From an uncultured Clostridia bacterium (lineage in GTDB: Bacteria > Bacillota > Clostridia > Oscillospirales > Acutalibacteraceae): a stretch of DNA of 42,093 bases. Below the pieces are notes generated by a model. The model made no database searches. It was not told the origin of the DNA and saw only the letters and a program-made list of their open reading frames with translations. This document shows positions 33 through 23,768 of this stretch, piece by piece (within the stretch, counting starts at the first letter, position 1; every line of letters begins with the position of its first letter). A program made the translations under genes and the position numbers. The stretch lies in the NCBI GenBank assembly GCA_947652665.1, contig CANTDZ010000011.1:1-42093 (forward strand), read 5' to 3'.

Positions 33-143
33 ATGGATCTAGCGGTTAATTTTATAATTTCTGTCGCTGCAAGTGTAATAGCCAATTACATAAGCAAGCT
101 CCTAGACAGAAAACCGAAGGCTAAAAAGCCTAAAGGGAAGTAA
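33..143 (+). CDS. small single-helix membrane peptide, putative type I toxin (copy A)
   Basis: A 36-residue ORF with ATG start, preceded by AAAGGGGG about 6 nt upstream. The peptide has a short N-terminus, one hydrophobic helix containing SVAASVIANYISKLLD, and a strongly basic lysine-rich tail. It is clearly related to the two peptides at 22971-23060 and 23299-23379, which share the core S-V-x-A-x-x-x-x-x-Y-x-x-K-x-L-D. It converges on an antisense RNA (about 223 to 148, minus strand) across a shared bidirectional terminator. That is the layout of par/Fst-type type I toxin-antitoxin loci. The basic tail is longer than in the other copies. Its own promoter would lie at or beyond the left edge of the window. 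Toxicity is inferred; the coding call rests on the ribosome site, family similarity and conserved architecture. Confidence 0.75.
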   Translation: MDLAVNFIISVAASVIANYISKLLDRKPKAKKPKGK

Positions 144-147
144 GCAA

Positions 148-223
148 AATGAAACCCCGGAGAGTCGCACCTCTCCGGGGTTTCGCTTTAAGGATTTGTG
201 GATTTAGCGGTCCTTTTTATCCT
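148..223 (-). ncRNA. putative antitoxin RNA for toxin A
   Basis: Predicted RNA of about 76 nt from the promoter at 230-258 to the terminator at 152-183. On the plus strand, 192-211 (GGATTTGTGGATTTAGCGGT) is a near copy of 25-46, which covers the toxin ribosome site, ATG and first four codons; there is one substitution and a short difference at the ATG. Because it is transcribed from the minus strand, this RNA can pair with the toxin mRNA's translation start. An AAGGA/TCCTT stem places the pairing sequence in a loop, as in the other copies. Confidence 0.72.
152..183. terminator. bidirectional intrinsic terminator shared by toxin A and its antisense RNA
   Basis: A perfect 13-bp stem (AAACCCCGGAGAG with CTCTCCGGGGTTT) closes a 6-nt loop, with T-rich flanks on both strands. 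The same stem core (AAACCCCGGAGG) ends the cassettes at 22916-22945 and 23238-23267. It is also the only terminator visible downstream of the flavodiiron gene at 267-2057. Confidence 0.85.
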
Positions 224-229
224 GTCAAA

Positions 230-258
230 AGTATAGCACAGACCAATGCAAATTGCAA
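230..258 (-). promoter_or_regulatory. sigma-A promoter of antitoxin RNA A
   Basis: Minus-strand TTGCAA (253-258), 17-nt spacer, TATACT (230-235) with a TGC extension directly before the -10. The -35 hexamer and spacing are the same as in the antitoxin promoters at 22838, 23160 and 23480. Confidence 0.75.
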
Positions 259-22446: not shown

Positions 22447-22755
22447 CTTGTTTGCCTCCTAAATAAAATATGTTTTTCCGTTTCCCCTTCCTTGCAGGGC
22501 GGGAGGGGAGTCCCGCCCATGGGGAAGGTTCACGGAAATATAAATACGGTGCCGAGTTGTTTCCCAGCACCGCAAGAACCATCTTAACGAACGCACAGCG
22601 GTTTACCCCTTGAATTGGACTTGCAAAACACAGAAAGAAAGGGTATAATATGGCCGTGGTGCAATTTCGATTGCTGTGCTGAGTGGGTTGGTCACTCGTA
22701 CAGGGCTGTAAGGTGCTACCAACGCCTTGCAGCCTGCCGCAATTTATATTTCCTT
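22447..22755 (-). other. long structured 5' leader of the SLH gene
   Basis: No ORF is supported here. Between the predicted start near 22754 and the SLH ATG lie several hairpins, including CGGTGC / GCACCG (22547-22572) and GGCGGGA / TCCCGCC (22498-22517, inside a larger TTCCCC / GGGGAA stem). No known riboswitch was recognised. Confidence 0.5.
22621..22649 (+). promoter_or_regulatory. promoter of the candidate antisense RNA
   Basis: TTGCAA (22621-22626), 17-nt spacer, TATAAT (22644-22649). Same hexamers and spacing as the antitoxin promoters downstream. Confidence 0.78.
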
Positions 22756-22819
22756 TCTTTATTATAGAACATCTTACCAAAAAATGCAAGATGAAATGTC
22801 CCGGGGCAGGGACTTTTTT
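22656..22819 (+). ncRNA. candidate structured RNA antisense to the SLH leader
   Basis: Predicted RNA of about 164 nt from the promoter at 22621-22649 to a short GTCCC/GGGAC hairpin with TTTTTT (22798-22819). Three successive hairpins: GCAAT-TTCG-ATTGC (22661-22674), GAGTG/CACTC with loop GGTTGGT (22681-22697), and GGCTGTAAGG / CCTTGCAGCC (22704-22734). The last two loops contain GTTGGT and ACCAAC, which can form a 6-bp loop-loop contact. The first 100 nt are complementary to the 5' end of the SLH transcript. It matches no RNA family I recognise; 6S RNA was considered and does not fit. Confidence 0.5.
22761..22789 (-). promoter_or_regulatory. promoter of the SLH gene
   Basis: Minus-strand TTGCAT (22784-22789), 17-nt spacer, TATAAT (22761-22766). 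Transcription from here overlaps the plus-strand RNA for about 100 nt. Confidence 0.7.
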
Positions 22820-22837: not shown

Positions 22838-22866
22838 TTGCAAATTTTGGCGCGGGGGAGTATAAT
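22838..22866 (+). promoter_or_regulatory. promoter of antitoxin RNA 1
   Basis: TTGCAA (22838-22843), 17-nt spacer, TATAAT (22861-22866). Confidence 0.82.
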
Positions 22867-22872
22867 AAAAAT

Positions 22873-22948
22873 GCGAAGTTAAGTAGAGACAAAGCATTCA
22901 CCAAGTCTCGAAAAGAAACCCCGGAGGGGGCAACCTCCGGGGTTTTTC
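22873..22948 (+). ncRNA. putative antitoxin RNA 1
   Basis: About 76 nt. CGAAGTTAAGTA (22874-22885) is identical to 23036-23047 inside the toxin gene (codons 5-9 region). ACAAAGCATTCACC (22889-22902) matches 23057-23070, which spans the toxin start codon and ribosome site, with two differences. Both lie on the plus strand while the toxin mRNA is minus, so they are antisense to it. A GAGAC/GTCTC stem (22886-22890 and 22905-22909) presents the start-pairing stretch in its loop. It ends at the shared terminator. This is the par (RNAII) logic. Confidence 0.8.
22916..22945. terminator. bidirectional terminator of cassette 1
   Basis: 12-bp stem AAACCCCGGAGG / CCTCCGGGGTTT with a 6-nt loop. TTTTT follows on plus, TTTCTTTT on minus. 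Antitoxin and toxin transcripts both end here and so share this complementary hairpin. Confidence 0.9.
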
Positions 22949-22970
22949 GTGCCTGTGGGCTCACTGGCCC

Positions 22971-23060
22971 TTACTTTTGTCCGTCGAGCCACTTGCAAAT
23001 ATAGTAGGCAACTACACTTGCTGCAACAGACAGTACGAAGTTAAGTATCATCTCTGACAA
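22971..23060 (-). CDS. small single-helix membrane peptide, putative type I toxin (copy 1)
   Basis: 29 residues from a TTG start with GGGGAGGTGG upstream. An acidic/polar N-terminus of three residues, a hydrophobic helix (about 4-22, SVAASVVAYYIC), and a short C-terminus KWLDGQK. The overall plan (short N-terminus, one helix, charged tail with K/R-x-L-D) recalls Fst (…ISRVLDEE…) and other type I toxins that insert in the membrane from inside. It is too short for most gene finders. Its start codon and ribosome site lie within the sequence repeated in antitoxin RNA 1. The promoter at 23107-23135 carries a Spo0A box. Toxic action is inferred. Confidence 0.78.
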   Translation of the reverse strand: MSEMILNFVLSVAASVVAYYICKWLDGQK

Positions 23061-23106
23061 AGCTTCCACCTCCCCTCCGTGCCTATATAGAAGGGGCAGC
23101 ATTTAT

Positions 23107-23135
23107 ACTATAGCACGGTTCGACAAAAACCGCAA
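23107..23135 (-). promoter_or_regulatory. toxin 1 promoter with embedded Spo0A box
   Basis: Minus-strand TTGCGG (23130-23135), 17-nt spacer, TATAGT (23107-23112) with TGC extension. The spacer contains TTGTCGAA (23119-23126), a perfect match to the core Spo0A box. Bound there, Spo0A or a relative would block polymerase. Confidence 0.72.
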
Positions 23136-23159
23136 GGTTAAGGAATTTTGCGCAGGGGG

Positions 23160-23188
23160 TTGCAAATTTGGGCGCGGGGGAGTATAAT
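23160..23188 (+). promoter_or_regulatory. promoter of antitoxin RNA 2
   Basis: TTGCAA (23160-23165), 17-nt spacer, TATAAT (23183-23188). Confidence 0.82.
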
Positions 23189-23194
23189 AAGAGT

Positions 23195-23271
23195 GCGAAG
23201 TTTAATAGAGACACGGATGCCATCAAGTCTCGAAAAGAAACCCCGGAGGCGGCTACCTCCGGGGTTTTTTT
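23195..23271 (+). ncRNA. putative antitoxin RNA 2
   Basis: About 77 nt, ending at a terminator with the 12-bp stem 23238-23249 / 23256-23267 and seven T. CGAAGTTTAATA (23196-23207) repeats CGAAGTCTAACA of the toxin gene (23358-23369); the two differences become G-U pairs in the RNA duplex. CACGGATGCCATC (23212-23224) repeats 23377-23390, covering the GTG start and ribosome site of toxin 2, with one gap and changes. The start-pairing part differs from antitoxin 1 exactly as toxin 2 differs from toxin 1. A GAGAC/GTCTC stem frames it. Confidence 0.8.
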
Positions 23272-23298
23272 GCTTCGGCTTACTACGCCCTTACGGAC

Positions 23299-23379
23299 TT
23301 ATCCGTCAAGCCGCTTGCAGATGTAGTAGGCTGCTATACCTGCTACGACGGACAACACGAAGTCTAACAGTTCTGTCAC
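23299..23379 (-). CDS. small single-helix membrane peptide, putative type I toxin (copy 2)
   Basis: 26 residues from GTG with GAGGAGGTGG six bases upstream. Same plan as copy 1: polar three-residue start (MTE), helix with LSVVAGIAAYYIC, then KRLDG and stop. About half of the residues match copy 1, and the match is best in the helix and K-x-L-D end, as expected for a selected peptide. The gene lies between its own promoter (23427-23455) and the terminator shared with antitoxin RNA 2. Function as a membrane toxin is inferred from size, helix and gene layout. Confidence 0.78.
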   Translation of the reverse strand: MTELLDFVLSVVAGIAAYYICKRLDG

Positions 23380-23426
23380 GGAACGCCACCTCCTCTCTGT
23401 GCCTATATGGAAGGGGCAGCATCTAT

Positions 23427-23455
23427 ACTATAACACGGTTCGACAAAAACCGCAA
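23427..23455 (-). promoter_or_regulatory. toxin 2 promoter with embedded Spo0A box
   Basis: Minus-strand TTGCGG (23450-23455), 17-nt spacer, TATAGT (23427-23432). TTGTCGAA at 23439-23446 sits at the same place in the spacer as in toxin 1. Since the units are duplicated this is not an independent occurrence. Confidence 0.72.
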
Positions 23456-23479
23456 GGTTAAGGAATTTTGCGCAGGAGG

Positions 23480-23508
23480 TTGCAAATTTGGACGCAGAAG
23501 AGTATAAT
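23480..23508 (+). promoter_or_regulatory. promoter of orphan antitoxin RNA 3
   Basis: TTGCAA (23480-23485), 17-nt spacer, TATAAT (23503-23508). Fully intact although no toxin follows. Confidence 0.82.
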
Positions 23509-23514
23509 ATACTG

Positions 23515-23590
23515 GTGAAGTTAAATAGGAACACAAGTCCCACCAAGTTCCAAAAGAAACCCCGGCGATGGCAGTCTCCGGGGTTTTTCG
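23515..23590 (+). ncRNA. orphan antitoxin RNA 3 (no adjacent toxin)
   Basis: Same layout as RNAs 1 and 2: TGAAGTTAAATA (23516-23527), ACACAAGTCCCACC (23531-23544), and a terminator with a CCCCGG/CCGGGG core (23557-23587). The framing stem is GGAAC/GTTCC instead of GAGAC/GTCTC, two compensatory pair changes. No toxin ORF lies downstream. Its pairing segments are nearest to those of toxin 1, so it may protect against toxin 1 or a related toxin elsewhere. Confidence 0.7.
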
Positions 23591-23768
23591 CATCTTTAAC
23601 CCCCTTTTGAGCCTGCACATCTAATCAAAATCCCCTGTTTTCAAGAAAATCAAGTCTTTTTCCGTCGCGATATGTCTTTTTCTGTCAAAAAATTCCCATT
23701 TTGCGCGCTTTATGAGCTATAATATCAGAAAAGCAATCGCTTTACAAACACAGAAAGGGATGGTTCAT
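23591..23768 (+). promoter_or_regulatory. upstream region of the Spo0A-like gene: direct repeats and -10 box
   Basis: GTCTTTTTCCGTC (23654-23666) and GTCTTTTTCTGTC (23674-23686) are near-identical direct repeats exactly 20 bp apart, about two helical turns. A consensus TATAAT lies at 23718-23723; its -35 is poor, which suggests activator dependence. The repeats sit about 30-65 bp upstream of the -10 and are a candidate operator. The rest of the stretch back to the end of antitoxin RNA 3 shows nothing else. Confidence 0.55.

What the first reader, a model, noticed from the sequence alone, without database searches (positions are those of the whole stretch)
22838..23590. Tandem par-like toxin-antitoxin array with unusual 26-29-residue membrane peptides
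Seen: each complete unit has a sigma-A promoter and short RNA on plus, a bidirectional terminator, and on minus a promoter, AGG-rich ribosome site and a one-helix peptide with the pattern S-V-x-A ... Y-Y-I-C-K-x-L-D-G. The units repeat every 320 bp. Known: the enterococcal par locus (Fst/RNAII) uses convergent RNAs and a shared terminator, but its peptide is different. Inference: a type I toxin-antitoxin family of Clostridia that ordinary gene callers would miss because the ORFs are under 31 codons and start with TTG or GTG.
Basis: partly seen in the sequence, partly recalled or inferred. Interest (0 to 1): 0.93.

Follow-up and report, generated by a model that had tools for sequence, protein, structure and literature searches.

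The report
Tandem membrane-toxin genes with matching antisense RNAs
A Clostridia genome carries back-to-back copies of a tiny gene pair, a predicted membrane toxin and the antisense RNA that should silence it, in which each RNA is matched to the start of its own toxin gene; the type of system is known, and the copy-by-copy matching is what stands out.

Summary
Two complete 320-bp units and a third without a peptide lie at 22838-23590. Each complete unit has convergent promoters, one bidirectional terminator and a 26- or 29-residue one-helix peptide on the minus strand. A related unit sits at window 33-258, another on contig C138. Relatives are common in Clostridia and occur on phages and plasmids, Lactobacillales plasmids included. 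The 5' part of the antitoxin RNA is complementary to the start of its own toxin gene in 121 of 128 loci, against 59 of 512 mismatched pairs. In 7 tandem arrays, 15 of 15 toxins pair best with their own antitoxin. In one array all 15 differences between two copies, over 238 nt, fall at the toxin start, its match in the antitoxin, and the terminator loop. This is par-type type I toxin-antitoxin control. The peptides miss the curated Fst and C. difficile toxin cut-offs. Rfam SpF66, named after one of a tandem pair of pneumococcal par loci with Northern data, matches toxin mRNAs of relatives, so the kind is known. Toxicity and transcription in this organism are inferred. Verdict: a real par-like family, best called a new variant of a known kind.

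The parts
22838..22866 (+). Promoter of antitoxin RNA 1, TTGCAA-17-TATAAT
   Evidence: read; in the family 124 of 128 loci have such a promoter scoring >=9 against 30% of shuffles
22870..22950 (+). Antitoxin RNA 1 (about 80 nt; ends inferred). Its address 22872-22885 is complementary to toxin 1 codons 5-9
   Evidence: duplex -42.1 kcal/mol, 0 of 300 shuffles as good
22916..22945 (.). Bidirectional terminator of unit 1
22971..23060 (-). Toxin 1 ORF, 29 aa, TTG start, one predicted membrane helix
   Evidence: KD19 maximum 2.0; E 8.5e-20 (the sequence is itself in that profile)
23107..23135 (-). Toxin 1 promoter TTGCGG-17-TATAGT; the leader includes a stretch that can pair with the Shine-Dalgarno sequence
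   Evidence: read; leader fold; family test
23160..23188 (+). Promoter of antitoxin RNA 2
   Evidence: read
23191..23272 (+). Antitoxin RNA 2 (ends inferred). Address 23192-23208 complementary to toxin 2 codons 4-9
   Evidence: duplex -42.8 kcal/mol, 0 of 300 shuffles as good
23238..23267 (.). Bidirectional terminator of unit 2 (loop differs from unit 1, stem the same)
23299..23379 (-). Toxin 2 ORF, 26 aa, GTG start
   Evidence: E 1.7e-15 (also in that profile)
23427..23455 (-). Toxin 2 promoter TTGCGG-17-TATAGT
   Evidence: read
23480..23508 (+). Promoter of RNA 3
   Evidence: read
23511..23592 (+). Orphan antitoxin-like RNA 3 (ends inferred), no toxin found beside it; keeps a 5' hairpin whose stem differs from RNA 1 and 2 by two compensatory pair changes (read by eye from the folds)
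23557..23586 (.). Terminator of unit 3
33..143 (+). Further toxin ORF of the family, 36 aa with lysine-rich tail; unit cut by the contig end
151..184 (.). Bidirectional terminator of the unit at 33
   Evidence: read
182..258 (-). Antitoxin RNA 5' part and promoter (TTGCAA-17-TATACT, 258-230) of the unit at 33
   Evidence: read; duplex -31.0 kcal/mol, 0 of 300 shuffles

Best explanation
A tandem array of par-like type I toxin-antitoxin modules. In each unit a leader-bearing mRNA encodes a short one-helix membrane peptide that is expected to harm the cell when over-made. A convergent RNA of about 80 nt shares the terminator. The terminator loops of the two RNAs are complementary by construction and probably make first contact. 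The 5' part of the small RNA then pairs with the start-codon region and the first codons and blocks translation. The variable N-terminal codons thus double as an RNA address, so paralogous units in one genome need not silence each other. Shown by sequence: anatomy, complementarity, its position, its specificity and its upkeep through matched change. Inferred: transcription in this organism, toxicity, the order of contacts, and a role in maintaining DNA (plasmid, phage or chromosomal segment).
For: 135 of 139 loci have a strong hairpin behind the stop codon. Ungapped direct repeat between toxin start and antitoxin 5' part: 117 of 128 loci at <=5 of 100 shuffles; in the 99 loci at <=1 of 100 it lies within the first 53 of 130 nt beyond the hairpin. 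With symmetric scoring, 121 of 128 cognate against 59 of 512 non-cognate pairs reach score 10; transitions that keep a G-U pair 303 against 186 that break pairing, p=1.4e-7, and 133 against 117 in non-cognate pairs. Double-centred duplex energy -7.15 against 0.06; best of 10,000 random matchings -1.47. In 7 of the 9 array loci, the 7 tested, 15 of 15 toxins pair best with their own antitoxin, mean -36.2 against -19.8. In L134 all 15 differences between two units over 238 nt fall in the toxin start (6), the terminator loop (4) and the antitoxin match (5). Shine-Dalgarno pairing with the leader exceeds shuffled leaders in 104 of 126. A bona fide Fst locus shows the same repeat at the same place. 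RF02442 (SpF66) matches toxin mRNAs of relatives; the pneumococcal locus of that name is one of two tandem Fst-like par loci with RNA-seq and Northern data (PMC9812572, PMC12323649, passages).
Against: No toxicity, transcription or pairing data exist for this organism. The peptides miss the curated Fst cut-off and a profile score of Fst is no better than shuffles. 7 of 128 loci lack the repeat at score 10. Of 16 plasmid and phage loci, 11 show the repeat at 8 or fewer of 200 shuffles, L184 and L195 only weakly, and L183, L190 and L191 not at all by the script; by eye L183 and L191 do have it behind a nearer hairpin that the script passed over, L190 does not. By raw duplex energy the cognate is ranked first in only 6 of 128 rows and 14 of 128 columns, because Shine-Dalgarno sequence and base composition are shared; after correcting for row and column means it is first in 21 rows. 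In the window genome some mismatched pairs also beat most shuffles: RNA 3 with the C138 toxin (0 of 300), RNA 2 with the toxin at 33 (3 of 300) and with toxin 1 (4 of 300).
Confidence: 0.86

Rival explanations
1. The peptides are divergent members of the Fst toxin family itself, so nothing but an unannotated known family is present.
For: Same RNA architecture and same repeat position as a genuine Fst locus; gapless hhalign of Fst against the family, probability 77%; RF02442 SpF66, named after a pneumococcal locus read as Fst-like, matches relatives (L187 65.1 and L192 49 bits, gathering 42). Fst-like sequences are reported in C. bolteae and C. asparagiforme (PMC6563280, passage) and Fst is said to occur in commensal Clostridia (PMC7472228, passage).
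Against: NF033608 is matched at E<=1 by 5 of 38 members, best 0.017, in a model whose cut-off is 26 bits; a search with NF033608 finds nothing in the own genome or in 60 others of the phylum at E<=0.01, though its control rings in Lactococcus lactis; profile score of Fst equalled by 354 of 2000 shuffles.
Confidence: 0.4
2. The peptides belong to the C. difficile type I toxin family (NF047374) and work by its overlapping antisense RNAs.
For: NF047374 matched by 25 of 38 members at E<=1, best 1.2e-4; a phage phiCD27 member (82.2 bits to NF047374) is equalled by 1 of 2000 plain and 0 of 2000 pattern-keeping shuffles against the family profile. Two copies in this genome have lysine-rich tails.
Against: Toxin 1 scores 16.9 bits against a 60-bit cut-off. 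No significant start-region repeat in 8 of 9 C. difficile-type loci tested; the ninth, L209, looks like a tandem toxin fragment because its downstream stretch matches every other toxin as well. The summed score of 7 of these loci was reached by 2 of 500 Markov shuffles, with L209 the main contributor. Array peptides lack the long lysine-rich tail.
Confidence: 0.15
3. Not a toxin: a small-RNA-regulated signalling or antimicrobial membrane peptide with the same RNA control.
For: Toxicity is untested; holin-like and bacteriocin-like profiles give weak matches.
Against: RNA silencing by an address, residence on small plasmids and phages, and resemblance to tested toxin families point to addiction; export or processing genes were not searched for.
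Confidence: 0.08
4. Chance or assembly artefact: a GC-rich tandem repeat with accidental short ORFs.
For: 213-contig assembly; the array's ORFs are under 31 codons.
Confidence: 0.01

Closest known systems
Streptococcus pneumoniae tandem par loci srf-27/spd_sr109 (F66, srn502; by name and length Rfam RF02442 SpF66) and srf-28/spd_sr111 (F67, srn503)
   Same: Two Fst-like par loci in tandem, each a toxin mRNA and an antisense antitoxin RNA, seen by RNA-seq and Northern (PMC9812572, passages; names matched through PMC12323649 and PMC3395615, passages). RF02442 matches toxin mRNAs of relatives of this family, mostly over its full length.
   Different: Window unit 1 scores only 19.7 bits against a gathering score of 42. 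I did not see the pneumococcal peptide sequences. The passages read do not speak of copy-specific addresses.
par locus of plasmid pAD1 (Fst / RNA I / RNA II), NF033608
   Same: Convergent promoters, shared bidirectional terminator, direct repeats that pair at the toxin start, sequestered Shine-Dalgarno (PMC7472228, passages); the same repeat position was found here in an Fst locus.
   Different: Peptide sequence not significantly similar; conserved core SVxASVVAYYICKWLD in place of the PxxxG helix of pAD1; very short charged tail in the array.
C. difficile type I toxins with RCd antitoxins (NF047374)
   Same: Weak but repeated sequence similarity of the N-terminal helix; convergent antisense RNA; mostly cognate-only silencing reported (PMC7699646, PMC6563280, passages).
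   Different: Characterised ones are longer (50-53 aa for three, others 34-47; PMC6563280, passages) with lysine-rich tails; no significant start-region repeat in 8 of 9 loci tested.
E. coli ldr/rdl long direct repeats (recalled; named in PMC7472228)
   Same: Tandem repeats each carrying a small membrane toxin and an antisense RNA (recalled).
   Different: Regulated more like hok/sok (PMC7472228, passage); 3 of 38 members match the Ldr profile at E<=1, best 0.025.

Membership tests
par-type (RNA I / RNA II) control | Convergent promoters | tested here: met
   Antitoxin promoter score >=9 in 124 of 128, shuffles 30%; toxin promoter 111 of 128, shuffles 35%
par-type (RNA I / RNA II) control | Shared bidirectional intrinsic terminator | tested here: met
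   135 of 139 loci with hairpin score >=20; units of the window
par-type (RNA I / RNA II) control | Direct repeats giving a second region of pairing at the toxin translation start | tested here: met
   positive control Fst locus L200
par-type (RNA I / RNA II) control | Shine-Dalgarno sequestered by the leader of the toxin mRNA | tested here: met
   Exceeds shuffled leaders in 104 of 126 loci, mean pairing 0.73 against 0.60: a modest excess
par-type (RNA I / RNA II) control | RNA-RNA inhibition and differential stability in the cell | not testable with these tools
   Needs RNA experiments
Fst toxin family NF033608 | Curated model score >=26 bits | tested here: not met
   Window peptides no match at E<=10; 5 of 38 members at E<=1, best 0.017; control Fst 34.7 bits
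Fst toxin family NF033608 | P/D/S/TxxxG motif in the helix and Trp before a charged C-terminus (PMC7472228, passage) | tested here: inconclusive
   Unit 2 SVVAG but Arg in place of Trp; unit 1 SVAAS with Trp; tails are short
C. difficile type I toxin NF047374 | Curated model score >=60 bits | tested here: not met
   16.9 bits for toxin 1; 25 of 38 members at E<=1, best 1.2e-4; control 82.2 bits
C. difficile type I toxin NF047374 | Lysine-rich C-terminus | tested here: not met
   Absent in toxins 1 and 2; present in the copies at 33 and on C138
Rfam RF02442 SpF66 | Gathering score 42 bits | tested here: not met
   Window 19.7 bits, E 0.037, full length. Relatives: 8 of 9 family loci at E<=1, two of them over the score (L187 65.1, L192 49.0), and 9 of 20 at E<=0.1, none over it, one by the terminator only
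Type I toxin-antitoxin system | Toxic peptide neutralised by the RNA | not testable with these tools
   Needs induction experiment

The most novel reading that the evidence does not exclude
An address-coded superfamily of par modules in which the first codons of the toxin are a hypervariable RNA barcode. After tandem duplication, three sites (toxin start, antitoxin 5' part, terminator loop) change together until the copies no longer protect against each other, so that loss of any one unit is punished. Orphan antitoxin RNAs at array ends, as in this window, could protect against addiction by incoming modules.
Probability: 0.4. Interest if true: 0.7.

Novelty: new variant of a known kind. Interest (0 to 1): 0.52.

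Why it matters
Hundreds of loci in Clostridia genomes, and others on phages and small plasmids, appear to carry an addiction module that the annotations seen do not name. Its RNA specificity can be read from sequence, which makes the evolution of orthogonal toxin-antitoxin pairs directly testable. It also suggests that Rfam SpF66, filed as a small RNA, is at least in part a toxin mRNA, and links the pneumococcal and clostridial systems.

Tried and rejected
Rfam at gathering threshold gave nothing in the window. Pfam, NCBIfam and PHROGs gave weak or unnamed matches; phrog_738 (unknown function) matches 32 of 38 members at E<=1, best 2.3e-6. A PDB profile search gave only an unrelated transporter at E 2.8; whether an Fst chain is in that set was not checked. 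Raw all-against-all duplex energies were a poor specificity measure and were replaced by double-centred energies, repeat scores and array matrices. NF047374 was found in 0 of 118 class genomes, but its control rang nowhere, so this says nothing about absence; NF033608 was found in 0 of 61 phylum genomes with the control ringing in one. The orphan RNA 3 has no other match in the genome with up to 3 mismatches in 23 nt; its pairing with the C138 toxin (-32.4 kcal/mol, 0 of 300 shuffles) is one of 16 non-cognate tests and is left open. A hint of start-codon repeats in C. difficile loci did not hold for single loci other than L209, and true pairs were no better than mismatched ones. The C. difficile-type loci were found by tblastn; only the phiCD27 one was scanned against NF047374. 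Literature: searches; 'YYICKWLD' and 'ICKWLD' found no paper. Weaver 2009 and Fozo 2010 (a wrong number, the right one) are not held, so I cannot say that the family is absent from print. Structure prediction was not run: a single helix would decide little.

Rows dropped: the 38 peptides of A2 were chosen by hand from the hits; near-duplicates, non-homologues and most hits without a usual start codon were left out. The first M was assumed, also in L034, L035 and L043, which show no usual start. One search kept 143 distinct ORFs that fit a motif and hydrophobicity filter in 181 loci (L011 and others with odd motifs are lost; one, L168 plus strand, is spurious); 139 had flanks; 135 passed the hairpin score; 128 remained after removing toxin starts at least 85% alike. 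One search used 7 of the 9 array loci (L065, widely spaced, and L159, weak, left out). One search used 7 of the 9 C. difficile-type loci.
Full report
What is there. The stretch 22838-23590 holds a tandem array with a 320-322 bp period. Read along the plus strand each unit has a strong promoter (TTGCAA-17-TATAAT), a short RNA and a hairpin with an A-tract before and a T-tract after it. On the minus strand, running into the same hairpin, are a promoter (TTGCGG-17-TATAGT), a purine-rich ribosome site and a peptide of 29 aa (unit 1, TTG start) or 26 aa (unit 2, GTG start). The third unit keeps promoter, RNA and terminator but no peptide of the family was found beside it. The same contig carries a related unit at 33-258 on the other strand, cut by the contig end, and the genome another on contig C138.

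A family. A profile of the four peptides finds matches in 12 of 29 genomes of the genus at E<=0.1. A 38-peptide profile finds 6 of 200 genomes sampled from the family at 1e-3 and 24 of 393 from the class at 1e-4; the own genome is counted in each. The 80 titles are mostly Lachnospiraceae, Oscillospiraceae and unclassified Clostridia, but include Selenomonas, Anaerovibrio, Sharpea, Erysipelotrichaceae and one Spirochaetia bin. In plasmids, 271 records match at E<=10, 201 of them Enterococcus, those listed having weak E-values. Of 16 plasmid and phage loci fetched (L183-L198), all have the core ICKWLD or a near variant; 11 show the start-region repeat at 8 or fewer of 200 shuffles, L184 and L195 weakly, and L183, L190 and L191 not by the script. 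By eye L183 and L191 have it behind a nearer hairpin; L190 does not. Among these loci are small Clostridia plasmids of Waltera, Mediterraneibacter and Mogibacterium and an inovirus. None of the modules is named as a toxin in the feature tables seen (those of the plasmids are incomplete).

Coding. Across 128 loci the core codons keep the residue while the third base varies, for instance Ile at -3 (entropy 0.27, 0 and 1.64 bits for the three positions) and Leu at +1 (1.07, 0, 1.77), counted from the conserved Trp. Codons -22 to -17, next to the start, have amino-acid entropies of 2.2 to 3.5 bits, against 0.12 to 0.48 at -16, -13, -10 and -4 to +2.

RNA anatomy. 135 of 139 loci have a strong hairpin behind the stop codon. 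Of the 128 kept, 124 have an antitoxin promoter scoring 9 or more (30% of shuffles), whose -10 box lies a median 42.5 nt from the hairpin. The 5' part of the antitoxin is complementary to the toxin start: the best ungapped direct repeat averages 15.2 against 9.2 in shuffles, 117 of 128 loci at 5 or fewer of 100 shuffles. In the 99 loci at 1 or 0 of 100 it lies within 53 nt of the hairpin out of 130 searched, and mostly over codons 1 to 9 of the toxin, most often codons 4 to 8. With a symmetric score 121 of 128 true pairs and 59 of 512 mismatched pairs reach 10. Differences that keep a G-U pair outnumber those that break pairing 303 to 186 (p=1.4e-7), against 133 to 117 in mismatched pairs. The leader pairs with the Shine-Dalgarno sequence more than shuffled leaders in 104 of 126 loci.

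Specificity. In the window genome the four cognate duplexes have -42.1, -42.8, -31.0 and -39.5 kcal/mol, each beyond 300 shuffles. The 16 non-cognate ones have -12.5 to -29.6, with one exception, the orphan RNA 3 with the C138 toxin at -32.4 (0 of 300 shuffles); two others, RNA 2 with the toxin at 33 and with toxin 1, are reached by only 3 and 4 of 300, so insulation is strong but not complete by this measure. In 7 tandem arrays, the window included, 15 of 15 toxins pair best with their own antitoxin, mean -36.2 against -19.8. In L134, from the toxin -10 box to the end of the antitoxin address, the two units differ at 15 of 238 positions: 6 at the toxin start, 4 in the terminator loop and 5 in the antitoxin match, none elsewhere. 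The window units likewise keep the terminator stem and change the loop. Tandem copies on the same strand also occur in L025, L061 (three), L028, L130, L146, and more widely spaced or weakly in L065 and L159.

Mechanism. The best explanation is par-type control, described for pAD1 as contact at the terminator loops followed by pairing at direct repeats that covers the initiation region (PMC7472228, passages). Shown here: the anatomy, the complementarity and its specificity. Inferred: transcription in this host, toxicity, contact order and biological role. Location on small plasmids and phages fits addiction. In the window no phage or plasmid gene was recognised by eye among the larger ORFs (no family search was made of them), so the chromosomal array may be a relic or a stabiliser.

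Membership. The peptides fail the curated models for Fst (26 bits) and for C. difficile type I toxins (60 bits), while genuine members used as controls pass at 34.7 and 82.2 bits. In a profile test Fst is no better than shuffles (354 of 2000 as good) and the C. difficile toxin is better (1 of 2000 plain, 0 of 2000 pattern-keeping). A genuine Fst locus has the start repeat at the same place. 8 of 9 C. difficile-type loci lack a significant one, against 112 of 125 family loci that have one in the same test; the ninth looks like a toxin fragment. So the toxin is nearer in sequence to C. difficile toxins and the RNA control is that of par. The bridge to known experiments is Rfam RF02442 (SpF66): it matches 8 of 9 family loci at E<=1, two Lactobacillales plasmid loci above its threshold, and 9 of 20 at E<=0.1, none above threshold and one by the terminator only. 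By name and length SpF66 is the pneumococcal F66 RNA, 239 nt, Northern-detected (PMC3395615, passage), later read as the toxin mRNA of one of two tandem Fst-like par loci (PMC9812572, PMC6212727, PMC12323649, passages). I did not see the pneumococcal peptide sequences.

Verdict. What I did not find in print, in the searches named in Tried and rejected and with two key papers not held, are the size and spread of the family and the evidence that duplicated units acquire separate RNA addresses. Since tandem par loci are known, I rate it a new variant of a known kind.

Noticed in passing
window 22600-22790: A structured RNA candidate between two inward-facing promoters: plus-strand fold z -4.1, minus strand z -1.45; copies on G000:C55, G007 (two) and G026, that is in 3 of 29 genus genomes. 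Consensus of the five copies, taken on the minus strand, has 30 pairs, 6 with a compensatory change and 5 broken or gapped in one copy. No Rfam match at gathering threshold.
   Followed up: partly
window 23511-23592: Orphan antitoxin-like RNA that pairs better than 300 shuffles with the toxin on contig C138; possible cross-protection, one of 16 non-cognate tests.
   Followed up: partly
L061 1049-2430: A three-unit array in another genus lies just downstream of two tRNA genes, compatible with an integrated element.
   Followed up: no
L187, L192, L028, L188 and others: Rfam RF02442 (SpF66), filed as a small RNA, matches toxin mRNAs of this family, mostly over its whole length.
   Followed up: partly
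L191 and L200 (NZ_CP082232.1): One E. faecalis plasmid carries both a genuine Fst locus (51271-51354) and a module of this family (77907-77990); the two kinds can live together.
   Followed up: no
L209 about 120 nt after the toxin stop: A second, toxin-like segment follows a C. difficile-type toxin gene on plasmid pCd5_2.
   Followed up: partly
L198 (PQ006100.1): A filamentous phage (inovirus) from Peromyscus faeces carries a module of this family; its end overlaps a gene on the other strand annotated as DNA-binding protein.
   Followed up: partly
L183 1300-1640: Streptococcus satellite phage Javan542 carries a related 37-aa peptide next to its integrase; by eye the stretch behind its terminator repeats the toxin start, though the script picked another hairpin.
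   Followed up: partly
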